Below, piece after piece: positions 3,799-55,935 of a DNA stretch of 64,000 nt. Numbering within the stretch: position 1 is the first letter of the stretch; every line of letters begins with the position of its first letter. Both the position numbers and the translations under genes were made by a program. This DNA comes from Methylocystis sp. L43 (GTDB lineage Bacteria; Pseudomonadota; Alphaproteobacteria; Rhizobiales; Beijerinckiaceae): positions 1-64,000 of the forward strand of contig NZ_JADNRA010000025.1 of the NCBI RefSeq assembly GCF_015709525.1, read 5' to 3'. The notes under the pieces are model-generated. The model ran no database searches. It saw nothing but the letters and a program-made list of their open reading frames with translations, and had not been told where the DNA came from.

Positions 3799-4947
3799 AT
3801 GGCGCGCGTTGCTAATGTTTGGAAATCCGTTGAGACGACGCTTGTTGCGCTTCCGCTGGCGGCGCTACTCGCCGCCGGCGGTTGGGCGATGGCCGAGCCG
3901 CTCGGCCTGCCAAAACTCCCGGTCCCGGCGGACAATCCGCAGTCGCCGGAAAAGATCGCGCTCGGCGACAAGCTGTTCCATGACGCGCGCTTCTCGATCG
4001 ACGGCACGGTGAGTTGCTCAACCTGTCACAACGACAAAAAAGCTTTCACGGACAGTCCGCTGCGGGTTTCCGAGGGTCACCATAAGCTGACCGGCACGCG
4101 CAACGCCCCATCGGTCATCAACGCGGCCTACTACACCTCGCAGTTCTGGGACGGACGTTCGATCTCGCTGGAGGATCAGTCGCAGCACCCGATGGTCAAT
4201 CCGGTGGAGATGGGGCTGCCCGATCACGAGCCGGTGCTCAAGATCGTTCGCGAAGATCCCGCCTATGTCGAGGGCTTCAAGAAGGCGTTCGGCAAGAGTG
4301 GCCGAGACGTGACGATGGATGACGTCGAGAAGGCGATCGCGAGCTTCGAGCGCACGATCATCTCGGGCGATTCGCCCTTCGACAAGTGGTATTTCGGCGG
4401 CGACCGCAACGCCATCAGCGATCAAGCCAAGCGCGGCTTCGACCTTTACGTCGGTCAAGGACGCTGCGTGTCCTGCCACGCCATCGAACAGACGCAGGCG
4501 CTCTTCACCGACAACAGGTTCCACAACATCGGCGTTGGGATCAACCGCATTCAAGGCGACGTGCCGCGCCTCGCCGCCGAATTCCTCAAGGCGAAAGCGG
4601 CGGGCGCGTCCGTCGACAAGACGGTGCTCGCCGATCCGAAGGTTTCCGAACTCGGCCGGTTCGCGGTGACGAACTCCTTCGATGAAATCGGCGCCTTCAA
4701 GACCACGACGCTGCGCAATATCGCGGTGACCGCGCCTTACATGCACGACGGTTCGCTCAAGACGCTCAAAGACGTCATCAAGCATTACAACGAGGGCGGA
4801 AAGAGCCCCGGCGATCCGACGCCGGTCAATCCCTATCTCTCCGGCGGCATTCGGCCGCTGGATTTGAAGGATCAGCAGATCGACGATCTCGTCGCTTTCC
4901 TGGAGACGCTGACGAGTCCTGCTTATGTGACGGCGCAGACAAAATAG
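3799..4947 (+). CDS. Di-heme cytochrome c peroxidase family protein, second copy
   Basis: A 382-residue exported protein related to but clearly different from the protein encoded at 2369-3406. It has a signal segment (about residues 13-32, ending GWAMA), heme sites CSTCH (73-77) and CVSCH (223-227), the QFWDGR signature and a PYMHDGS segment near the second domain. It should be a periplasmic di-heme peroxidase. A GGAGGGG ribosome site lies just before the ATG. The next gene, a Tat-exported phosphoesterase, follows after 72 bases on the same strand and the cytochrome gene after that, so the three may form one transcript. Confidence 0.88.
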   Translation: MARVANVWKSVETTLVALPLAALLAAGGWAMAEPLGLPKLPVPADNPQSPEKIALGDKLFHDARFSIDGTVSCSTCHNDKKAFTDSPLRVSEGHHKLTGTRNAPSVINAAYYTSQFWDGRSISLEDQSQHPMVNPVEMGLPDHEPVLKIVREDPAYVEGFKKAFGKSGRDVTMDDVEKAIASFERTIISGDSPFDKWYFGGDRNAISDQAKRGFDLYVGQGRCVSCHAIEQTQALFTDNRFHNIGVGINRIQGDVPRLAAEFLKAKAAGASVDKTVLADPKVSELGRFAVTNSFDEIGAFKTTTLRNIAVTAPYMHDGSLKTLKDVIKHYNEGGKSPGDPTPVNPYLSGGIRPLDLKDQQIDDLVAFLETLTSPAYVTAQTK

Positions 4948-21603: not shown

Positions 21604-22271
21604 CGCGGCTGCGCACCGCGATTCTCATCTCGGGGCGCGGCTCAAACATGGACGCGCTGATCGCCGCCGCCAGGGACCCCAACTTCCCGGCTGAAATCGC
21701 CCTTGTGCTTTCCAATCGTCCCGATGCGCCGGGCCTCGCCAAAGCCAAGGCCGCCGGCGTCGCGACGGCCGCGGTCGACCACAAGATTTATGCGGGACGC
21801 GAGGAATTCGAGCGTTCGCTGCAATTGGTGCTGGAAACCTACCGCATACAATTCATTTGCCTCGCCGGTTTCCTGCGCATGTTTACGCCCTGGTTCGTCG
21901 GCCTCTGGCGCGGGCGCATGCTCAACATTCACCCTGCCCTGCTGCCCTCCTATCGCGGACTCGACACGCATGAGCGTGCGCTGGCCGACGGCGTAAAGAT
22001 TCACGGCGCCACCGTGCATTTCGTCGTGCCGGAAATGGACGAAGGTCCGATCGTCGCGCAGGCCGCCGTGCCCGTGCTCGACGACGACACGCCGGACACC
22101 CTCGCCGCCCGCGTGCTCGCGCAGGAGCATGTCATCTATCCGATGGCGCTGCGGCTGGTCGCGTCGGGCGCCGTGCGGATCGAAGGCAATCGCGTGCTCT
22201 CGGCGCCGGCGCCCCGCGAGGCGGTGCTTATCGTTCCCGACGCAACCGCGCCCAGCAAGGGAATTTCATGA
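21600..22271 (+). CDS. purN: Phosphoribosylglycinamide formyltransferase
   Basis: A 223-residue folate-dependent enzyme transferring a formyl group to GAR in purine synthesis. It shows [11 protein letters not shown] near the start, the active-site block [16 protein letters not shown] and [16 protein letters not shown] with the catalytic Asn, His and Asp. It starts at a GTG whose TG is shared with the purM stop codon, and it overlaps the next gene by four bases. purM-purN is a common bacterial pair. Confidence 0.94.
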
Positions 22272-22981
22272 CGATTACGCTTTACTGCTTCCGCCCCGTC
22301 GCCGGATTGCCGGACGCATCGCCTTTCGTGACGAAAGCGATGGTGCTTTTGAAGATGGCCGGCCTCGACTATGTCGAAGACCGCAGCGGCTTTTCGAAAG
22401 CGCCGAAAGGCAAGCAGCCCTACATCAATGACGACGGCGAAGTCATCGCGGATTCGACCTTCGTTCGCTTCCATATCGAAAAGAAATACGGCGTGGACTT
22501 CGACGCACATTTGAGCGACGCGCAAAAGGCGATCGGCTGGTGCGTCGAGAAGATGTGCGAAGAACATCTCTATTGGATCATCGTCCATACCCGCTGGATG
22601 GACGAGGCTAATTTCGAACGCGGTCCGGCGCGTTTTTTCTCAAGCGTGCCCGCCCTCGCGCGCCCGCTGGCGAAATGGTTCATTCGCCGCAAGATCGCCA
22701 AATCGCTTTGGGCGCAAGGCATGGGCCGTCACAGCCCGTCGGAAATCGATGCGCTCGGCGTGCGCGACATTGAAGCGCTCGCGACGCTGATCGGCGACAA
22801 GCCCTATCTCTTCGGCGATGCGCCCTGCGGCGCCGACGCTACGGTCTTCGCCTTTGTGGCGTCGGTCTTATCGCCGATGTCGGAGAGCGCCGTTCGCGAC
22901 GCGGCGCTGGCGAGCGCCAACCTCGTCGCCTATAGCGACAGGATCATGCAGGCGTATTTTCCTGAGAACGCGCCGGCATAG
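22268..22981 (+). CDS. Glutathione S-transferase-like protein (FAXC/metaxin type)
   Basis: A 237-residue protein with an N-terminal thioredoxin-like domain (ITLYCFRPVAGLPDASPFVTK), a PYINDDGEVIADSTFV stretch equivalent to the glutathione-binding region, and a helical C-terminal domain with ADATVFAFVAS. This is the pattern of the failed-axon-connections/metaxin branch of GST-like proteins. Its start overlaps purN by four bases (ATGA), so it belongs to the purMN operon. No role in purine synthesis is known for this family; detoxification or thiol chemistry is a guess. Confidence 0.72.
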   Translation: MTITLYCFRPVAGLPDASPFVTKAMVLLKMAGLDYVEDRSGFSKAPKGKQPYINDDGEVIADSTFVRFHIEKKYGVDFDAHLSDAQKAIGWCVEKMCEEHLYWIIVHTRWMDEANFERGPARFFSSVPALARPLAKWFIRRKIAKSLWAQGMGRHSPSEIDALGVRDIEALATLIGDKPYLFGDAPCGADATVFAFVASVLSPMSESAVRDAALASANLVAYSDRIMQAYFPENAPA

Positions 22982-48122: not shown

Positions 48123-49052
48123 ATGCGGATCAGAATCTTGGGGTCGGGAGCCGGCGGCGGCTTCCCGCAATGGAATTGCAACTGCGCGAATTGCCGGGCT
48201 GTCCGCGCCGGAGCGCCTGGCTTTTTGCCGCGCACACAGTCCTCATTGGCGGTGAGCGCCAATGGCGCCGATTGGCTGCTGCTCAACGCCTCGCCTGATC
48301 TGCGCGAGCAAATCGCCGCCGCGCCCGAGCTTGCTCCCGCCCCCGATGACGGTCTGCGCGCGAGCCCGATCAAGGCGGTGGCGCTGACAAATGGCGACGT
48401 GGACCATGTCGCGGGTCTTCTCAACATGCGTGAAGCGCAGCCGTTCAGCCTCTACGCCGCGGGACGGGTTCTCGATGCGCTCGGCGCCAATCCGATTTTC
48501 ACGATCCTGCAGACGCAGCTCGTGCCCCGCATTGAGCTGCGCATAGACGAAGCCGTGCCTGTCACCGGAGCGGGCATCGATCTAGGTCTCGCGATCCGCG
48601 CCTTCCCCGTTCCGGGCAAGATCGCGCTCTACCTCGAAAACGCCAATGCGCCGAATTTCGGCACGAGCGCCGGCGACACGTTGGGGCTTGAAATAATCGA
48701 AGCCGGAACTGGCGACTCGTTCTTTTACATTCCGGGATGCGCCAAGGTTGACGCGGATCTCGCCGAGCGGCTTCGGGGCGCCAAGCTTGTCTTCTTCGAT
48801 GGCACGCTTTTCCACGAAAATGAGATGATCGAGCAAGGTCTGCTCGGCAAGACCGGCTCGCGCATGGGCCATATCAATGTCAGCGGCGCCGACGGCTCCA
48901 TCGCCGCGTTCGCGCCGCTCGACGTGAACCGCAAAATTTATGTGCACATCAACAATTCCAATCCTCTGCTCAACGAATTCTCGGACGCATATGCGACCGC
49001 TCAAGCGGCCGGCTGGGAAATCGGCGAGGATGGCATGGAGGTCGACCTGTGA
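48123..49052 (+). CDS. pqqB: PQQ biosynthesis protein B
   Basis: A 309-residue metallo-beta-lactamase-fold protein. It begins MRIRILGSGAGGGFPQWNCN with the Cys pair of the family (NCNCANCRAV), has TNGDVDHVAGLL in the metal region and MGHINVSGADGS near residue 250. PqqB acts as a tyrosine hydroxylase-like step on the PqqA-derived intermediate. It leads pqqB-pqqC-pqqDE with overlapping genes. PQQ serves methanol dehydrogenase in methanotrophs. Confidence 0.95.
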   Translation: MRIRILGSGAGGGFPQWNCNCANCRAVRAGAPGFLPRTQSSLAVSANGADWLLLNASPDLREQIAAAPELAPAPDDGLRASPIKAVALTNGDVDHVAGLLNMREAQPFSLYAAGRVLDALGANPIFTILQTQLVPRIELRIDEAVPVTGAGIDLGLAIRAFPVPGKIALYLENANAPNFGTSAGDTLGLEIIEAGTGDSFFYIPGCAKVDADLAERLRGAKLVFFDGTLFHENEMIEQGLLGKTGSRMGHINVSGADGSIAAFAPLDVNRKIYVHINNSNPLLNEFSDAYATAQAAGWEIGEDGMEVDL

Positions 49053-49819
49053 ACGAGATCGTAGCCATTGATTGGCGCGGCGTCGCGCCCCTCCCCCGCG
49101 ACGAATTCGAAGCTGCGATCCGTGCGATTGGCGCCGAGCGCTATCACGACAAGCACGAGTTTCATAAGCTGCTGCACGGCGGCAAGCTCAACAAGGATCA
49201 GGTCGCCGCCTGGGCGCTGAACCGCTACTGCTATCAGGAGGCGGTGCCGCGCAAGGACGCCGCTTTCATGAGCCGCGTCCATGATCGCGAGCTGCGCCGC
49301 GAATGGATACATCGCATCCATGATCATGATGGTCTGGGCGAAGAAGGCGGCGGCATCGAGCGCTGGCTCGTGCTGACGGACGCGCTCGGCTTCTCGCGCG
49401 ACTACGTGACCTCTCGGCGCGGCGCCCTGCCCGCGACGAAATTCGCCGTCGAAGCCTATGTGCGCTTTGTCGTCGAGCAGCCGCTCGTCGTTGCGGTCGC
49501 GTCTTCGCTGACCGAACTCTTCGCGCCGTCGATCCATCGCGAACGCATCGTCGGAATGCTGGAAAATTACGATTTCGTCGACGACCAGGTGATGGCCTAT
49601 TTCAAACGCCGGCTGACCCAGGCGCCGCGCGATTCCGAATTTGCGCTCGGCTATGTGCTCGATAACGCCAAAACCCGCGCTGAACAGGAAGCCTGCGTCG
49701 GCGCCGTGCGGTTCAAATGCGACGTCTTGTGGGCGCAGCTTGACGCATTACATCACGCCTACGTCACGCCCGGGCCGATCCCGCCCGGCGCATGGCGGCC
49801 AGGAGAAGCAAATGTCTGA
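49049..49819 (+). CDS. pqqC: PQQ synthase
   Basis: A 256-residue cofactor-free oxidase doing the last ring closure and oxidation to PQQ. It has YHDKHEFHKLLHGGKLN, WALNRYCYQEAVPRKDAA, HDHDGLGEEGGGIERW and the C-terminal ALHHAYVTPGPIPPGAW. It starts at GTG overlapping pqqB by four bases and overlaps pqqDE by eight. Here PqqC stands alone, unlike the PqqC-PqqD fusion of Methylobacterium. Confidence 0.95.
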   Translation: MNEIVAIDWRGVAPLPRDEFEAAIRAIGAERYHDKHEFHKLLHGGKLNKDQVAAWALNRYCYQEAVPRKDAAFMSRVHDRELRREWIHRIHDHDGLGEEGGGIERWLVLTDALGFSRDYVTSRRGALPATKFAVEAYVRFVVEQPLVVAVASSLTELFAPSIHRERIVGMLENYDFVDDQVMAYFKRRLTQAPRDSEFALGYVLDNAKTRAEQEACVGAVRFKCDVLWAQLDALHHAYVTPGPIPPGAWRPGEANV

Positions 49820-51284
49820 GGCGCATGCCGCGCGGTTCGTGATCGGGCCGGATTCGCGTTCGGCCTTCACGCGCTACGCGCGGCTGCACGAAGACCGCGC
49901 GCGCGCTCGAACGGTTATTCTCGCGCCCGAGCGCGCCTATGAACTCGATCCGATTGGGCTCATCGTGCTGCGCGCGATTGATGGCGCAACACGCCTCGCC
50001 GATCTGTGCGCGCGCCTCGCGCAGCAATATTCCGCGCCCCTCGACGTTATCACGCGCGACGTCACGGCGCTGCTGCAAGGCCTCGCCGACAAGCGGCTGC
50101 TGTGCGACGGAACCGACGAATTTGCGGCGCCGCCGCCTTCCGCCTTCGCCGCGTCGATCGCGCCATTCGCGGGCGGACCCGCGGGGCTGCTCGCCGAGCT
50201 TACGCATCGCTGCCCGCTGCAATGTCCGTACTGCTCCAATCCGCTTGAGCTCGAGCGCTCGAATACCGAACTCACCGCCGATGAATGGGGCGAGACCTTC
50301 CGTCAGGCGGCGTCGATCGGCGCGCTGCAGCTGCATCTTTCCGGCGGCGAACCCACCGTGCGACGCGATCTTGAAGAGATACTCGCACAGGCGGTCGACG
50401 CGGGGCTCTACACCAATCTCGTCACCTCCGCCGTTCTGCTGACGCGCGAGCGGTTGCAGCGTCTCGCCGAGATCGGCCTCGATCATGTGCAGGTCTCCAT
50501 CCAGGATGTCGTTCCTGAGAGCGCCGACCGAATCTCGGGCTATCAGGGCGGCGTCGGCAAGAAGCGCGACGTCGCGCGATGGACGCGCGAATTCGGCATG
50601 GGATTGACGATCAATGCGCCGATGCACCGGCAGAACATTGCGCATCTGCCGCAGATTATCGATTTCGCCGTCGAGGTCGATGCGCAGCGCATCGAGATCG
50701 CGCATATTCAATATTACGCCTGGGCGCAGATGAACCGGGCCGCGCTCATCCCGACACGCGACGCCTTCATGGAAACAGTCGGCATCGTCGACGAGGCGAA
50801 GAAGCGTCTCGCCGGCGTTCTCAATTTCGATTTCGTCATCCACGATCATTACGCGACGCGGCCAAAGGCCTGCACCGGCGGCTGGGGCCGTTCGATCATG
50901 GCGGTGACGCCGTCCGGCAAGGTTCTGCCCTGCCACGCCGCGCAGACCTTGCCGGGACTGACATTCGACAATGTGCGCGAGAGACCGCTCGCCGACATTT
51001 GGCGGAACGGCGCAGCCTTCAACGCCTTCCGCGGCACGGATTGGATGAAGGAGCCCTGTCGTTCCTGCGAGCGCCGCGAAATCGATTTCGGCGGTTGCCG
51101 CTGTCAGGCGTTCGCCATCGCCGGCGACGCCGCGGCGACAGACCCCGCCTGCCACCTCTCGCCGGACCATGCGCGCTTTGCCGCTTACGCGGAAGTCGAA
51201 TCGCACATCACGGCGCCGGACTTTATCTATCGCCGCTATGGCGGCGCCGCGGCGTCAACGGCGCGCGCCAAGGAGCCGGCGTGA
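49812..51284 (+). CDS. pqqDE: PqqD-PqqE fusion: peptide chaperone and radical SAM enzyme
   Basis: A 490-residue fusion. Residues 11-98 are a PqqD domain (YARLHEDRARARTVILAPER, then VLRAIDGATRLADL) that binds PqqA. Residues 120-490 are PqqE, with the radical SAM motif CPLQCPYC (Cys134, 138, 141), LHLSGGEPTVRRDL and a C-terminal SPASM region with CTGGWGRS, PCHAAQ and PCRSCERR. It cross-links Glu and Tyr in PqqA. It has an AGGAG site and overlaps pqqC by eight bases. No pqqA is seen upstream. Confidence 0.95.
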   Translation: MSEAHAARFVIGPDSRSAFTRYARLHEDRARARTVILAPERAYELDPIGLIVLRAIDGATRLADLCARLAQQYSAPLDVITRDVTALLQGLADKRLLCDGTDEFAAPPPSAFAASIAPFAGGPAGLLAELTHRCPLQCPYCSNPLELERSNTELTADEWGETFRQAASIGALQLHLSGGEPTVRRDLEEILAQAVDAGLYTNLVTSAVLLTRERLQRLAEIGLDHVQVSIQDVVPESADRISGYQGGVGKKRDVARWTREFGMGLTINAPMHRQNIAHLPQIIDFAVEVDAQRIEIAHIQYYAWAQMNRAALIPTRDAFMETVGIVDEAKKRLAGVLNFDFVIHDHYATRPKACTGGWGRSIMAVTPSGKVLPCHAAQTLPGLTFDNVRERPLADIWRNGAAFNAFRGTDWMKEPCRSCERREIDFGGCRCQAFAIAGDAAATDPACHLSPDHARFAAYAEVESHITAPDFIYRRYGGAAASTARAKEPA

Positions 51285-51285
51285 T

Positions 51286-51759
51286 CTACCGCTGAGCTGC
51301 GCGAGGATCGTCGCGCGGATCAAGATAGGTGATGTTCCACGGGCCGACGCCGGTCACTTGCACCACTGTATCGTCTTCGAAGGTGACCCAATGGCCCGCT
51401 TCCGCGGGCGTCGCCGCAAAACCGCCGGCGGCAAGCGTCTTCTCGGCGTTTGGATCGAGCTTGGCTCCTTCGCCGTAACGAACGGCTCCCGACAGCACCG
51501 TCATCGTCTCCATCCCGCTGTGCTTGTGCAGCCCGATTTTATATCCTTTGGGCGCACGCATTCTCAGAATGTAGGGTCCGCCCTGCGTCGGATCGCCGAA
51601 GAGCATCGCGACTTCCGCGCCCCTCGGCAGTTCTGACGGACCCGCTTTCCATTCGAGTTTATCTTGCGAAAAAGCGGAGCCTGGAGCTTCCGCCATTACG
51701 GCGATGGGAGCTGCGAGGCTTATGGCCGCGCCCGCAAGAATTGCAGCAAGATTTCGCAT
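51286..51759 (-). CDS. Secreted cupin-domain protein
   Basis: A 157-residue exported protein with a signal peptide ending APIAVMA. The cupin barrel carries KIGLHKHSGMETMTVLSG (first motif with metal His/His/Glu) and GHWVTFEDDTVVQVTG (second motif). It may bind a metal and small molecule in the periplasm; its substrate is unknown. GGAGG precedes the ATG at 51759. It converges with pqqDE two bases away. Confidence 0.72.
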   Translation of the reverse strand: MRNLAAILAGAAISLAAPIAVMAEAPGSAFSQDKLEWKAGPSELPRGAEVAMLFGDPTQGGPYILRMRAPKGYKIGLHKHSGMETMTVLSGAVRYGEGAKLDPNAEKTLAAGGFAATPAEAGHWVTFEDDTVVQVTGVGPWNITYLDPRDDPRAAQR

Positions 51760-51936
51760 AGCTTGGGCCTCCAAAGCGCGCCCCTGGCTTGAGATAGTGC
51801 GCCGAAGACACACAGCGACGAAGAATTCAAAAATTCGATTTCGGTAACAAACGAGCAACTTCCCCAGGGCATATTGAGCCTTGTCTCGCGGAGTTAAGGA
51901 TTTGTTTCGCATAAGTTGCGTAATGGAGCTTGTCGC

Positions 51937-52341
51937 ATGAAGTCGCGGGATACGCTTGTCCGTCTCAAACGGTTCCAGGCCGAGGAAAAACGCCGGCGCG
52001 TCGTCCAATTGAATGCAATGATCGCCGAATTCACGCGCATGGCCAATGAGCTCGACCGTGAAATCGGTCAGGAAGAGCGGCGCGCCAACATCGACGATCC
52101 CAATCATTTCGCCTATCCGACTTATGCGCGGGCGGCGCGCACGCGACGCGACAACATCCTTGCGTCGATCGCGGAACTGCGCGGCCAACTCGAAGAAGCG
52201 GAAGCGCAGTTCAAGGAAGCCAGCGAAGACTTCGCCAAGGCGCAGAGTCAGGAGGCGCGAGACCGCGGCGCCGAGCGCATGGTTGATGTCGTCGCCGAGC
52301 GGCGCCACGCAGAAATGCCGGAAGTTTTGCGCAGGGTTTAA
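51937..52341 (+). CDS. FliJ-like coiled-coil protein
   Basis: A 134-residue, almost wholly helical and charged protein, starting MKSRDTLVRLKRFQAEEKRRR and running as a long coiled coil through EEAEAQFKEASEDFAKAQSQ. It resembles the Rhizobiales FliJ-type flagellar export chaperone, which escorts substrates to the export ATPase. No other flagellar gene is in this window. It overlaps the end of the MNIO cassette by four bases, convergently. Confidence 0.65.
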   Translation: MKSRDTLVRLKRFQAEEKRRRVVQLNAMIAEFTRMANELDREIGQEERRANIDDPNHFAYPTYARAARTRRDNILASIAELRGQLEEAEAQFKEASEDFAKAQSQEARDRGAERMVDVVAERRHAEMPEVLRRV

Positions 52342-52916
52342 GGCTGAAATAGCCGCCAGCGCAGCCTGCCTCCGGGCGCGCGCGCCCAAACGCCAAACGT
52401 TTTTCGGCGAACGGCGCTGAACTCTTCGCCTTTGGCGAGAGCCTGGGCGACCGATGCGACATTGAAATCAAACGCCCGGAAAAAAAGCGTCGCGCCGGAA
52501 CGCCCGGCGTCGATGAAGGCCAATTCGAAACGCGCGAGGTCGGCGACCCAGCGCGGCTCCAATTCGCTTTTTGCGACACGCGTATCGATAAATGCGATCA
52601 GCGCCGCAGCGTCCGAGCGATTTGTCGCCTCTCGCGCAGCGCCGTGGATCGCCTGCCGGAAAAGCGCATCGAATCGATCGCCCAATGCGCGCGCTGTGAG
52701 CGGCAGCGCCCTGCGCACATAAAGCGCGCGTTTGCCGATCAGGCTCTGCGCAAAGACTTCCGTTTCGCGCCTGTCGATTCCGGCGAGGCGCTCCGTGTCA
52801 TACATGCTCAAGCCGAAACGCATCGCCACGGCGATCGGCGCTTCGAAGAATTCCCGCCGCAGATCATCGTCGGTGAACAGGCGCGCGAGCAGCGCCTGCG
52901 TCTGCGCTAACGCCAT
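52338..52916 (-). CDS. MNIO partner protein candidate (third gene of the cassette)
   Basis: A 192-residue soluble protein. Its N-terminus has the order LLARLFTDDDLRREFFEAP, then RFGLSMYDTERLAGID. This F-x-D-x-x-x-R-x-x-F...G-L-...-L-x-x-I pattern is like the short helical domain found in several RiPP-associated leader or recognition proteins; that likeness is by eye only. The remaining 150 residues are Ala/Arg-rich and helical, with FELAFIDAGRSGATLFF near the end. It overlaps the MNIO gene by ten bases, so it is cotranslated. In methanobactin and bufferin clusters the MNIO enzyme also needs a partner protein, and this is the likely equivalent here. Confidence 0.6.
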   Translation of the reverse strand: MALAQTQALLARLFTDDDLRREFFEAPIAVAMRFGLSMYDTERLAGIDRRETEVFAQSLIGKRALYVRRALPLTARALGDRFDALFRQAIHGAAREATNRSDAAALIAFIDTRVAKSELEPRWVADLARFELAFIDAGRSGATLFFRAFDFNVASVAQALAKGEEFSAVRRKTFGVWARAPGGRLRWRLFQP

Positions 52917-53749
52917 CGCCCGTTCTCCACGAGCGTCCGTCGCGCGCGCGCCACTTCATCGATGAGTTCGCCGAACGGCGGCATTTTCTCGTCGCGCTCG
53001 AGAATGACGGCCTTGACCGGCGCGCGGGCGATGACGCGATCATAGAGCCGCCAAACCGCATCGCTCGTCGCGGCGTCATGGCTGTCGATCAACAGACCGT
53101 CTCGCTCTCGTCCGCCGGCGTAGTGGATTTGCACGAGTCTGTCCCATGGCCAGCGCGCGAAGTCGCTTTCGAGATTGGCGCCGAAATTCGTCGCATTCAC
53201 ATGCATGTTGGCGACGTCGCACAGCCAACCGCATCCGGTCGCTTCCAGCGTGCGCCACAAAAATTCAGCTTCGTCCATTTCGCCGCCTGGAATGCGCACC
53301 ACGCAAGTGATGTTTTCCAAAATCAGCGGCGTCTTGATGCGCCTGCGCACTATTTCGACATTGCGCGCGACGACGTCGATGGCTTCCTGCGTATAGGGCA
53401 GCGACGCAAGATGCCCAATGCTGATTCCGCCCGCGCGCGTGAAGCAAAGATGTTCGCTCCACCAGGGCGGATCGATGCGTTCGATCAGCGCGGCAATTTT
53501 ATCGAGATAGCATGAGTCGACGCCGTCCGCGCTTCCGATCGAGAGATCGAGACCATGCGCGACGAGCGGAAAATGCGCTCTTAGAAGCTCAAGTTCAGCG
53601 AGCTTTTCTTTTGATGCGTCGAGATAATGATCAGCGATGATCTCGATAAAATCGACATCGTCCCGTCGGGCGAAGAGATCGGCGCGAAACTGCGGACGAT
53701 AGCCAAGTCCGGACCCGAGGGCCGGCGCGTCAATCGCGGACGCCACCAT
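52907..53749 (-). CDS. DUF692/MNIO multinuclear non-heme iron oxygenase
   Basis: A 280-residue TIM-barrel enzyme of the family that includes MbnB (methanobactin), TglH and BufB. These enzymes use two or three irons and oxygen to rebuild cysteine side chains in peptides. The expected metal-ligand positions are filled: His65 (VAHGLD), Glu99-His100 (SEHLCF), Glu145-Asn146 (LENITC), Asp178, Asn181 and His183 (CDVANMHVN), His209 (QIHYAGG), Asp222 and His224 (IDSHD), Glu251 (ILERD). I start at ATG 53749, preceded by GGAG; it overlaps the membrane-protein gene by 20 bases. The frame is open to 53878. Confidence 0.9.
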   Translation of the reverse strand: MVASAIDAPALGSGLGYRPQFRADLFARRDDVDFIEIIADHYLDASKEKLAELELLRAHFPLVAHGLDLSIGSADGVDSCYLDKIAALIERIDPPWWSEHLCFTRAGGISIGHLASLPYTQEAIDVVARNVEIVRRRIKTPLILENITCVVRIPGGEMDEAEFLWRTLEATGCGWLCDVANMHVNATNFGANLESDFARWPWDRLVQIHYAGGRERDGLLIDSHDAATSDAVWRLYDRVIARAPVKAVILERDEKMPPFGELIDEVARARRTLVENGRWR

Positions 53750-54653
53750 CGCTCGCTCCGCCGTCGCCGCAACTGCCGCCGCAGCTTGTTCCGCAATCGG
53801 AGCCATCGCTTCCGGAGCCGCGACTGAAGGCTTCGGCGAACATCGCCTCCGTCGTGCCCTTGAGCGGCGCGAATCCATATAGGCCGATGAGAAACAACGC
53901 GGCGCCGTGGAAGGCGCGCGCTTCGGGTCCGGGCGATCCGATGTGACCGACGGCCGCCTTCAGACGCCCGCCATAGGCCAGCCGCATCGCGTCGAGATAG
54001 GCGTGGCCGCGACGGCTGGCATGGGTTCTGGTCAGCACATAGGCAAGCGCAAAAAGCGACGCGACCGACGCAGCTGCGAGAAAGACCAGATAGGCGACAT
54101 TCTCGGCGCCCGCTGTCCATTCCACATAGATCTTGGCAAGCGCCAGGCCGACGATGATCAGCGTTCCGCCGATCTGCGCGCGCCGGCGCCAAATCTTCAC
54201 CGACTTGGGCTTGATCAGCTCCTCCGCGGCGAGCTTGGCGCGCAGCGGCGCGAGCTGTTCCAGCAGCCAGCGCCGCAAGCCGCGATCTTCGAACAGCGCA
54301 TGCGCCTTCGGCTTCGCCTGCACGGCTTCGAGCAGGCGCGTCTCCATGGCGTTGAGTTCGCCCGGCTCCGGCTGCTTGTCTGTCGGAATCACGTGATCCT
54401 CCGCGGCGAGGACGACGAAGCCGCGCTGCGCAAGATCATAGATCAGCGTTCGGATAACCTGATTGACGCCGCCCTGCAGGAAGGCGACCTCCATCGCGTC
54501 GGGGTTCTGCGGCACGGGCGGCGGCGCGCGGCGACCGGTGCGGTCCGCGAGCCGAATGCAAAGGTAAGTGGCCGCCAGCACGAGGATGACGACGAGGCCG
54601 AAGACATTGAGAAATTCAGGCCCGGGAAGATTAAGGATCGCAATGTTCTGCAC
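53730..54653 (-). CDS. TIGR04222-type membrane protein with C-terminal Gly/Cys tail
   Basis: A 307-residue protein. Order: membrane helix at 16-33, a cytoplasmic domain of about 130 residues (FLQGGVNQVIRTLIYDLAQRG), two further helices at 163-178 and 186-206, another soluble stretch, then a low-complexity tail from about 278 with Cys287, Cys291 and Cys295 (CGTSCGGSC) among Gly, Ser and Asp. TIGR04222 describes such membrane proteins ending in a Gly/Cys-rich tail, often next to DUF692 genes. I infer that the tail is the substrate of the MNIO enzyme encoded next. It lies ten bases after ctaA. Confidence 0.82.
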   Translation of the reverse strand: MQNIAILNLPGPEFLNVFGLVVILVLAATYLCIRLADRTGRRAPPPVPQNPDAMEVAFLQGGVNQVIRTLIYDLAQRGFVVLAAEDHVIPTDKQPEPGELNAMETRLLEAVQAKPKAHALFEDRGLRRWLLEQLAPLRAKLAAEELIKPKSVKIWRRRAQIGGTLIIVGLALAKIYVEWTAGAENVAYLVFLAAASVASLFALAYVLTRTHASRRGHAYLDAMRLAYGGRLKAAVGHIGSPGPEARAFHGAALFLIGLYGFAPLKGTTEAMFAEAFSRGSGSDGSDCGTSCGGSCGDGGASDGGVRD

Positions 54654-54663
54654 GCCAGCCGCC

Positions 54664-55776
54664 TCAGTTCGTGATCACGTCTTGCACAAGCCGTCGCGCC
54701 TGCAGCGTCGCGACGCCCAACACCGCCATCCCGATCGCCTGATGCGCGAGCGCCAGCGCCAGATGCGGGTCGCCGGCGAAGGGCGGCTGGACCAGCACCA
54801 ATGTCGCAACGCCAAGCGCGATCTGCATGAGCACATGGCCGAACAGGATCACGGCGCCGCGGCGCGCGCGTCCTTCCGCGTTCATCCACGCATCCAGAAG
54901 ATGCCCGAGCGCCAGAGCGAAGATCAGATAGGCGATCATGCGGTGGAAGAATTGGACGGTGACCGGATTGTCGACGAGATTGGTCCAGACCGGCTCCAAT
55001 CGCCACAAGACGTCGGCCGGAGGAACGAAGACGCCATCCATCAACGGCCAAGTGTTATTGACGAGGCCCGCCCGCAGTCCGGCGACAAGGCCGCCGACGA
55101 AAATCTGCAGAAACACAAAAGCCAGGATCGTCAGCGCGACCGCCTTCAGGCGACCTGCGCCCCCATGCACGAGAGAGACGGCGCGCGGCCCAAGGCCGCC
55201 GGCCACCCATAAACAGGCGGAAAAGATCAGCGCGGCGAGCAGCAAATGGATCGCGAGGCGCTCCTGCGCCACCTCGATGCGATTGACGAGGCCGGATGCG
55301 ACCATCCACCAGCCGACGCCGCCCTGGAGCGCCCCGAGCGCAAGAATGCCGACGAGCTTCGGCTTCGCCGAACGCGGCAGGCGGCCGCTCGCCCAAAACC
55401 ATATGAGCGGAACGGCGAAAACGACGCCGATCACCCGTCCCAGAAGACGATGCGCCCATTCCCAGGCGTAGATGTATTTAAACCCGGCGACATCCATGTC
55501 GGGGAACAATTCCCTGTATTGCGGAATCTGCTTGTAGGCTTCGAACGCCTCCTGCCACTCCTGCTGGGACAGCGGCGGCAGCACGCCAGTGACGGGCTTC
55601 CATTGGACGATGGAGAGGCCCGATTCGGTCAACCGGGTCGCGCCGCCAACGATGACCATCAGAAAGACCAGCCCCGCGACCAGCCACAGCCAGTCGCGCA
55701 CCGCCCGGGCGTTCGCCTCGGTCGCATGGTGCCTGATCGCCGGGATAGGTTGGGGAAAATGCAGCCAATCTTCCAT
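54664..55776 (-). CDS. ctaA: Heme A synthase
   Basis: A 370-residue inner-membrane enzyme that oxidises heme O to heme A for cytochrome oxidase. It has about eight helices and the conserved blocks VGGATRLTESGLSIVQWKP, EWAHRLLGRVIG with a heme-ligand His, LAIHLLLAALIFS, NNTWPLMDG and VQFFHRMIAYLIF. This is the COX15-like type of Alphaproteobacteria. It is transcribed just upstream of the MNIO cassette with only ten bases between, so they may share an mRNA. Confidence 0.93.
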   Translation of the reverse strand: MEDWLHFPQPIPAIRHHATEANARAVRDWLWLVAGLVFLMVIVGGATRLTESGLSIVQWKPVTGVLPPLSQQEWQEAFEAYKQIPQYRELFPDMDVAGFKYIYAWEWAHRLLGRVIGVVFAVPLIWFWASGRLPRSAKPKLVGILALGALQGGVGWWMVASGLVNRIEVAQERLAIHLLLAALIFSACLWVAGGLGPRAVSLVHGGAGRLKAVALTILAFVFLQIFVGGLVAGLRAGLVNNTWPLMDGVFVPPADVLWRLEPVWTNLVDNPVTVQFFHRMIAYLIFALALGHLLDAWMNAEGRARRGAVILFGHVLMQIALGVATLVLVQPPFAGDPHLALALAHQAIGMAVLGVATLQARRLVQDVITN

Positions 55777-55935
55777 GAGACGCCGAGGGTTGGGAGGCGG
55801 ATGACGGCGGCCAGTTAAGGGATGCGGCCCTCGCTTGTCCACACCCCGCGGCCGTCTCCGGCAAGTCGGGTCAATTTGGCTGAAAACTGCGCCGCTGCGG
55901 ATGTTAGACTAGCGCGGCTTGAGTCGAGGGATCAG

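What the first reader, a model, noticed from the sequence alone, without database searches (positions are those of the whole stretch)
52338..54653. MNIO cassette: cysteine-tailed membrane protein, DUF692 oxygenase and a third protein in one overlapping operon
Seen: three minus-strand genes overlapping by 20 and 10 bases. The middle one has the full DUF692 metal-ligand set (His65, Glu99, Asn146, Asp178, His183, His209, Asp222, His224, Glu251). Known: DUF692/MNIO enzymes (MbnB, TglH, BufB) oxidise cysteine in peptides with a partner protein, and TIGR04222 membrane proteins with Gly/Cys tails occur near DUF692 genes. Inferred: this is a dedicated modification system whose substrate is the C-terminal tail of a membrane protein instead of a free leader peptide. 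The product, and whether it binds a metal such as copper, are unknown. In a pMMO organism a copper role is attractive but unproven.
Basis: partly seen in the sequence, partly recalled or inferred. Interest (0 to 1): 0.88.

Follow-up and report, generated by a model that had tools for sequence, protein, structure and literature searches.

The report
MNIO enzyme with cysteine-tailed membrane protein
Three overlapping genes in a methane-eating bacterium encode a membrane protein with a cysteine-rich tail, an iron enzyme of a family that chemically alters cysteines, and that enzyme's likely docking partner; the kind was predicted in print in 2025, and comparison of relatives here supports, without proving, that the tail is what the enzyme modifies.

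Summary
The cassette is real. Minus-strand genes 53730-54653 (TIGR04222 membrane protein, tail Cys287/291/295), 52907-53749 (MNIO/DUF692 enzyme) and 52338-52916 overlap by 20 and 10 bases. The third protein is a TglI-like MNIO partner by predicted fold ("PME-type 2").

The kind is not new: TIGR04222 + MNIO + PME-type 2 clusters were described in 2025 (PMC12452194) as possible protein substrates of MNIOs.

New here: among 39 genomes of the genus (Methylocystis) the MNIO orthologue occurs in 27, always beside TIGR04222 and the partner gene; 26 of 27 keep the Cx3Cx3C tail (the exception has a frameshifting deletion). Five genomes keep TIGR04222 in place but lack enzyme, partner and tail. On the tree this is one event, so suggestive only. 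The cassette occurs in about nine phyla.

Against: Cys-tailed TIGR04222 proteins also occur in genomes with no MNIO at all. Copper is untested, and the cassette is not confined to methanotrophs. Tail topology is unsettled.

The parts
53730..54653 (-). TIGR04222 membrane protein, 307 aa (GTG start): predicted helix 11-36, a soluble part about 50-145, long helices 150-181 and 186-208, disordered tail from about 279 with Cys287, Cys291, Cys295; putative substrate
   Evidence: TIGR04222 80.7 bits; AlphaFold pLDDT 80.1, residues 279-307 under 50; three tail Cys invariant in 26 of 26 genus cassettes with the tail in frame
53748..53795 (-). DNA coding for residues 287-302, which hold the three tail cysteines; the MNIO start codon (53747-53749) lies at its downstream edge
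   Evidence: read
52907..53749 (-). MNIO (DUF692) multinuclear non-haem iron enzyme, 280 aa; ligands His65, His100, Glu145, Asp178, Asn181, His209, Asp222, His224, Glu251
   Evidence: PF05114 276.7 bits; NCBIfam BufB 238.7 bits, under its cut-off 310; ligand mapping and conservation
52338..52916 (-). Likely MNIO partner protein, PME-type 2 (TglI-like), 192 aa: helical N-terminal domain and a short three-strand C-terminal part
   Evidence: AlphaFold pLDDT 92.1; Foldseek 8hi7_A of the TglHI holoenzyme, E 9.9e-5, probability 1.00, TM 0.66 by query and 0.50 by target, rmsd 5.9; weak sequence matches of single homologues to the HvfC model, 2 of 27, best E 0.019
54664..55842 (-). ctaA / COX15 haem A synthase gene, ending 10 bases before the cassette; syntenic neighbour, not shown to be part of the system
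   Evidence: PF02628 329.5 bits; beside TIGR04222 also in genus relatives
51916..52341 (+). fliJ-like gene, convergent, end overlapping the partner gene by 4 bases; syntenic neighbour only
   Evidence: TIGR02473 30.5 bits, under its cut-off 50.45; beside the locus also in relatives

Best explanation
A dedicated protein-modification cassette. The partner (52338-52916) binds the MNIO enzyme (52907-53749) and presents to it the disordered C-terminal tail of the TIGR04222 membrane protein (53730-54653). The enzyme's iron centre then oxidises one or more of Cys287, Cys291 and Cys295, most likely to thiooxazole- or oxazolone-type groups as in bufferins and methanobactin, leaving a membrane-anchored modified tail that could bind a metal. 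Shown: gene order, families, complete iron-ligand set, predicted partner fold, invariance of the three cysteines, linked absence of enzyme, partner and tail. Inferred: that the tail is the substrate (about 0.7), the heterocycle chemistry (about 0.45), metal binding, copper in particular (about 0.35), and that the tail lies on the cytoplasmic side (about 0.6).
For: All nine TglH-type ligands are present and invariant in 38 of 38 MNIOs. The third protein is predicted to fold like the partner in the TglHI holoenzyme. There is no room for another precursor in the cassette: 10 bases to ctaA upstream, a 4-base overlap with the fliJ-like gene downstream, overlapping genes inside. In 39 genomes of the genus an MNIO orthologue (74-100% identity; the next MNIOs are at most 39%) is in 27, each beside TIGR04222 and the partner gene; 26 of 27 have at least three tail Cys, and the Cx3Cx3C cysteines are invariant in those 26 (19 distinct tails). 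Five of the six TIGR04222 genomes without it have tails with 0 or 1 Cys and no tblastn trace of enzyme or partner in the fetched region; the sixth reads N there. The five group inside the MNIO-linked branch, so a loss is the simplest account (quick tree). Outside the genus 17 of 20 related MNIO loci, from about nine phyla, have a neighbouring TIGR04222 protein with at least three tail Cys, and 19 of 20 have the partner.
Against: The co-absence is one event on the tree. Of 19 TIGR04222 loci without an MNIO within 5 kb (or to the contig end), 11 lie in genomes with no MNIO at all, and 9 of those 11 have at least 2 tail Cys, so Cys tails exist without this enzyme. G450 keeps the MNIO while its tail is out of frame through a 34-base deletion (metagenome-assembled, may be an artefact). 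L157 has a related MNIO without TIGR04222 or partner, and L152 has MNIO and partner without TIGR04222. In L156 the TIGR04222 copy next to the MNIO has no tail Cys; the copy before it has six. Sequence similarity of the partner to DUF2063 proteins is negligible (0 of 27 Pfam hits; hhalign probability 2.8). No chemistry or complex was tested.
Confidence: 0.68

Rival explanations
1. The MNIO and partner modify something else (a peptide coded elsewhere, or a non-cysteine residue of the membrane protein), while the TIGR04222 protein is an anchor, sensor or export helper and its Cys-rich tail a general feature of the family.
For: Cys tails in 9 of 11 TIGR04222 genomes that have no MNIO; MNIO loci without TIGR04222 at L152 and L157; published analysis finds that over a quarter of TIGR04222 proteins lack C-proximal Cys and 490 of 1372 genomes with TIGR04222 lack MNIO (PMC12452194, passages).
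Against: Tail, enzyme and partner are absent together in five genomes of the genus; Cx3Cx3C is in 13 of 13 genus and 4 of 17 other linked tails but in 0 of 17 unlinked tails; no free precursor fits in the cassette.
Confidence: 0.22
2. The tail is modified but the role is not metal chemistry: the modified cysteines attach a lipid or another group, or act as a redox or stress sensor at the membrane.
For: The cassette occurs in many phyla, and clustering of neighbouring frames in 22 loci showed no other family that recurs widely (neighbours were clustered, not annotated); a nucleotidyltransferase-like gene is next to it in 4 of 22.
Against: The best-scoring MNIO model is the bufferin maturase, and bufferins chelate copper (PMC12452194, abstract and passages).
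Confidence: 0.3
3. The tail is carried to the periplasm after modification, as proposed in print, instead of staying on the cytoplasmic side (compatible with the tail being the substrate).
For: Published AlphaFold-based topology of two other TIGR04222 proteins (PMC12452194, passages); a moderately hydrophobic helix 243-259 could be a fourth membrane segment; the stretch after helix 1 is not net positive across the family (mean K+R 2.1, D+E 3.1).
Against: Positive charge lies before helix 2 and after helix 3 (mean 3.6 and 3.5 K+R) but not in the 2-3 loop (0.7); the fourth helix reaches membrane-like hydropathy in only 9 of 30 proteins and not in the window protein.
Confidence: 0.4

Closest known systems
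TIGR04222-MNIO-PME-type 2 gene clusters (Antoine et al. 2025, PMC12452194; abstract, passages and section 18 seen)
   Same: Same three kinds of protein, Ser/Gly-rich Cys tail, TIGR04222 gene often before the MNIO gene, no DUF2063 gene
   Different: Nothing in kind; added here are a within-genus absence of enzyme, partner and tail together and a fold test of this partner; charge distribution leans to a cytoplasmic tail whereas the paper argues for a periplasmic one
Bufferins (BufA/BufB/BufC)
   Same: Best-scoring MNIO model is BufB; Cys-containing substrate; partner protein
   Different: MNIO under the BufB cut-off (238.7 against 310); candidate substrate is a 307-aa protein with membrane helices; partner has no DUF2063 signature
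TglHI (3-thiaglutamate)
   Same: Iron-ligand set; partner fold matches 8hi7_A
Methanobactin MbnABC (an MbnB gene is also in this genome, L004)
   Same: MNIO plus partner acting on cysteines
   Different: TIGR04159 score 50 against a cut-off of 325; no MbnC model among the partner's hits; no small MbnA-like gene in the cassette

Membership tests
MNIO (DUF692, PF05114) | PF05114 over its cut-off | tested here: met
   276.7 bits against 25
MNIO (DUF692, PF05114) | Nine iron ligands as in TglH | tested here: met
   All nine present, invariant in 38 of 38
MNIO (DUF692, PF05114) | Iron-dependent oxidation of a peptide or protein | not testable with these tools
   Needs an enzyme assay
Bufferin maturase BufB (NF050167) | Score over the curated cut-off 310 | tested here: not met
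   238.7; cassette MNIOs L144, L149, L162 score 221.6, 249.6, 204; this genome's other two BufB-like enzymes score 377.1 and 368.1
Methanobactin MbnB (TIGR04159) | Score over the curated cut-off 325 | tested here: not met
   50; this genome's MbnB (L004) scores 456.2
TIGR04222 membrane protein | Score over the curated cut-off 43 | tested here: met
   80.7
TIGR04222 membrane protein | C-terminal Cys residues in a Gly/Ser-rich tail (MNIO-linked subset) | tested here: met
   Cys287, 291, 295
PME-type 1 partner (DUF2063) | PF09836 signature | tested here: not met
   0 of 27 sequences up to E 1; this genome's two MNIO-linked DUF2063 proteins match it
PME-type 2 partner (TglI-like) | Fold like TglI or NGO1945 without DUF2063 signature, gene following an MNIO gene | tested here: met
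   Predicted fold: Foldseek 8hi7_A E 9.9e-5, TM 0.66; NGO1945 (3dee) is not among the 50 matches shown; no DUF2063 hit
PME-type 2 partner (TglI-like) | Forms a complex with its MNIO | not testable with these tools
   No complex prediction or assay on hand
Classical MNIO precursor with Sec signal peptide | Small precursor peptide with Sec signal | tested here: not met
   307 aa with three predicted membrane helices, no charge in residues 1-12; no signal-peptide predictor was run

The most novel reading that the evidence does not exclude
The MNIO with its partner modifies a full-length, resident inner-membrane protein on its tail at the cytoplasmic face, with no leader removal and no export: a membrane-tethered metal-binding tail instead of a released RiPP, with the protein's own soluble domain serving as the recognition part.
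Probability: 0.3. Interest if true: 0.75.

Novelty: new member of a known kind. Interest (0 to 1): 0.5.

Why it matters
MNIO enzymes are best known for acting on precursor peptides; a proven case on a membrane protein would widen the class to protein modification. Methylocystis offers an unusually clean natural comparison: species of one genus with the same gene at the same place, with and without enzyme, partner and tail. This genome also carries an MbnB gene and bufferin-type systems, so the roles of different MNIO systems could be told apart in one organism.

Tried and rejected

The idea that a Cys tail by itself marks an MNIO substrate was rejected: 9 of 11 MNIO-free genomes with TIGR04222 have such tails.

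Treating the five tail-less genomes as five independent cases was rejected: they are one clade.

The single 570-aa TIGR04222-MNIO frame in G450/L089/L132 was considered as a linking fusion and rejected: a 34-base deletion shifts the frame; it may be an assembly fault.

Shared neighbours as a clue to function: in 22 loci (some cut short by contig ends) only the three cassette genes recur widely; a nucleotidyltransferase-like gene in 4 of 22 reaches no Pfam cut-off (best 20.9 bits against 21). Other clusters were not checked; the larger ones look like other-frame readings of the cassette.

Foldseek for the TIGR04222 model gave no match at E 0.001 or better. The partner profile against PDB sequences gave nothing better than E 0.2.

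Literature: TIGR04222 occurs in 2 of the papers held; a six-term search found none; papers and 73 other than the two below were seen as listings and abstract starts only. PMC12452194 was seen as abstract, passages and section 18, PMC10880893 as passages. Supplementary files were not read, so these loci may be listed there.
Full report
What is there. The window lies in a genome of 4.06 Mb in 35 contigs; its genus-mates are Methylocystis, judged by named records whose contigs have the same lengths. On the minus strand, 10 bases after ctaA (COX15-CtaA), begin three overlapping genes: a TIGR04222 membrane protein (53730-54653), an MNIO enzyme (52907-53749) and a 192-aa protein (52338-52916) whose end overlaps a convergent fliJ-like gene by 4 bases. 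There is no space for an additional precursor gene within the cassette.

The enzyme. It scores 276.7 bits to PF05114. Its best NCBIfam model is the bufferin maturase BufB, but under that model's cut-off (238.7 against 310); three cassette enzymes from other organisms behave alike (221.6, 249.6, 204), while two other MNIOs of this genome pass (377.1, 368.1) and a further one passes the MbnB model (456.2; all). So this looks like an MNIO subfamily of its own next to BufB; no tree of MNIOs was built. Mapping the TglH iron ligands (passages of PMC10880893) through the PDB alignment gives His65, His100, Glu145, Asp178, Asn181, His209, Asp222, His224, Glu251, all invariant in 38 of 38 proteins.

The third protein. 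It has no Pfam family. An AlphaFold model built with an alignment of 27 sequences is confident (pLDDT 92.1), and its only PDB match at E 0.001 or better is chain A of the TglHI holoenzyme (8hi7_A, E 9.9e-5, probability 1.00, TM 0.66 by query and 0.50 by target, rmsd 5.9). TglH is the 304-aa chain of those entries, so chain A, of 269 residues, is TglI, by exclusion. Single homologues touch the HvfC (2 of 27, best E 0.019) and ApyI (1 of 27, E 0.093) models. DUF2063 is matched by none of 27, and profile comparison with this genome's two DUF2063 proteins is negligible (probability 2.8). This fits the published description of a PME-type 2 partner (PMC12452194, section 18). A curious point: the N-terminus matches the Os1348-type NHLP leader model in 23 of 27 sequences at E up to 1 (best 6.8e-10); the window protein's own match, residues 7-59, is under the cut-off (24 against 40).

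The membrane protein. The model (pLDDT 80.1) has helix 11-36, a soluble part, helices 150-181 and 186-208, and a disordered tail from residue 279. DUF2207_C is matched by 13 of 30 family members at E up to 0.1 (best 6.4e-10), though not by the window protein itself. No PDB fold matches. Positive charges lie before helix 2 (mean 3.6 K+R) and after helix 3 (3.5) and not in the loop between (0.7); after helix 1 the picture is mixed (K+R 2.1, D+E 3.1). The segment around 243-259 is membrane-like in 9 of 30 proteins but not in the window protein. This favours a cytoplasmic tail, where the enzyme is. The published view, from models of two other members, is a periplasmic tail. This is a crude test and the point is open.

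Comparison in the genus. TIGR04222 is over cut-off in 33 of 39 genomes. An MNIO 74-100% identical to the window's is in 27 of 39; the next MNIOs are at most 39% identical. In all 27 it lies beside TIGR04222 and a homologue of the third gene (one homologue cut by a contig end). In 26 of the 27 the tail carries 3-5 Cys, and the three Cys of the Cx3Cx3C motif are invariant in all 26 (19 distinct tails), while most of the other tail columns vary. The exception, G450, has a 34-base deletion that shifts the tail out of frame. Of the six TIGR04222 genomes without this MNIO, five (G238, G451, G465, G463, G346) have tails with 0, 0, 0, 1 and 1 Cys and the fliJ-like gene directly downstream, with no trace of enzyme or partner by tblastn; ctaA is upstream in the four whose contig reaches that far. 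The sixth (G453) reads N over the tail and cannot be judged. The six genomes without TIGR04222 have no such MNIO either (best 37%).

How strong is that? The five form one clade (96/87), and three of them put into a wider quick tree fall inside the MNIO-linked branch; two MNIO-bearing loci from other genera, one with the fliJ-like gene beside it, are the outgroup. So the simplest account is one coordinated loss of three things. It fits a substrate-enzyme relation, but it is a single event.

Comparison beyond the genus. A scan of one genome per species with the cassette MNIO alignment returned 37 loci. TIGR04222 is a neighbour of the MNIO in 34 of 37 (one more is cut by a contig end; L152 and L157 lack it) and the partner is present in 36 of 37. 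Leaving out the 17 from the genus, a TIGR04222 protein with at least three tail Cys is in 17 of 20 and the partner in 19 of 20. One of the 17 (L154) is a weak, short match (19.9 bits); in another (L156) the copy next to the MNIO has no tail Cys and the copy before it has six. Record titles and lineages cover Pseudomonadota, Verrucomicrobiota, Acidobacteriota, Cyanobacteriota, Planctomycetota, Armatimonadota, Actinomycetota, Myxococcota and Bacteroidota; many are metagenome bins. So the cassette is not a methanotroph or pMMO feature.

Results against. In the family sample, 12 of 149 genomes have TIGR04222 over cut-off, and 5 of those 12 have the MNIO beside it; in the phylum sample 14 of 398 have it, and only in the window's own genome is it linked (within 5 kb or to the contig end). 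I tested 21 genomes outside the genus for MNIO anywhere: 2 have the cassette, 19 have no MNIO beside TIGR04222, and 11 of those 19 have no MNIO at all; of the 11, 9 still have at least two tail Cys, one has none and one is cut by a contig end. Seventeen of the 19 were put in the tree and form another branch (two cut by contig ends were left out). Their tails have no Cx3Cx3C (0 of 17), against 13 of 13 linked genus and 4 of 17 other linked tails. A Cys tail therefore does not by itself imply this enzyme.

Mechanism. Best reading: the partner docks on the MNIO as TglI does on TglH, holds the membrane protein and feeds its flexible tail to the iron centre, which oxidises cysteines. What product forms, and whether it binds copper, is inferred from relatives only. 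The same genome has an MbnB gene in a methanobactin-like operon and a bufferin-type operon, so copper uptake and copper buffering seem to have their own MNIO systems; this one may serve something else.

Novelty. The cluster type, with the suggestion that MNIOs modify the tails of these membrane proteins and use PME-type 2 partners, is in PMC12452194 (2025). Methylocystis has no occurrence in that paper's searched text. I found no experimental work on TIGR04222 in the papers held (two papers). I file it as a new member of a known, still unproven kind. The added value is the natural with/without comparison, the invariant cysteine triplet, the corrected ligands, the fold-based partner assignment, and doubt about the periplasmic topology.

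Noticed in passing
L004 (G000:C33 around 89535-90266): Methanobactin-like operon in the same genome: MbnB (456.2 bits, cut-off 325), preceded by a short gene for a peptide with two Cys near its end and followed by genes that look like mbnC and a MATE exporter (mbnA, mbnC and MATE named by recall).
   Followed up: partly
L002 (G000:C15 around 21876-22673) and L001 (G000:C30 around 51012-51791): Bufferin-type operon (DUF2282 precursor, MNIO, DUF2063 partner, a DoxX-like gene by recall) and a second MNIO-DUF2063 pair: with L004 and the cassette, four MNIO loci in one genome.
   Followed up: partly
window 48123-51284, + strand: PQQ cofactor genes: pqqB- and pqqC-like (by recall) and a fused PqqD-PqqE (PqqE 521.7 bits, cut-off 381.35), another peptide-modification system about 1 kb from the cassette.
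   Followed up: partly
L146 about 3947-4705, L158:787-1557, L162:4292-5050, L163:4285-5028: A nucleotidyltransferase-like gene (best Pfam 20.9 bits against 21) lies upstream of TIGR04222 in four cassettes from three phyla; it may be a fourth component.
   Followed up: partly
L106, L107, L109, L110, L116, L124, L125: TIGR04222 proteins of about 470-540 aa with an extra N-terminal part and a Gly-Cys tail, no MNIO within 5 kb; in those read in full (L106, L107, L124, L125) the N-terminal part has a W-H-x-H stretch. No Pfam match for L106, L109, L124.
   Followed up: no
L154:35-643: A TIGR04222-like protein that seems to lack the soluble domain and keeps membrane helices and the Cys tail, beside an MNIO and partner: possibly a minimal substrate (near a contig end, so it may be incomplete).
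   Followed up: no
L152:125-592: In a Verrucomicrobia genome the cassette MNIO and partner lack TIGR04222, but a small protein with a B-box-like Cys cluster (14.4 bits, under its cut-off 27) and Gly-Cys stretches lies upstream; possible alternative substrate.
   Followed up: no
window 52338-52916, residues 7-59 of the partner: N-terminus of the partner resembles NHLP/Os1348 RiPP leaders and, weakly (E about 0.25), the LigA-like borosin precursor domain (SonA); meaning unknown.
   Followed up: partly
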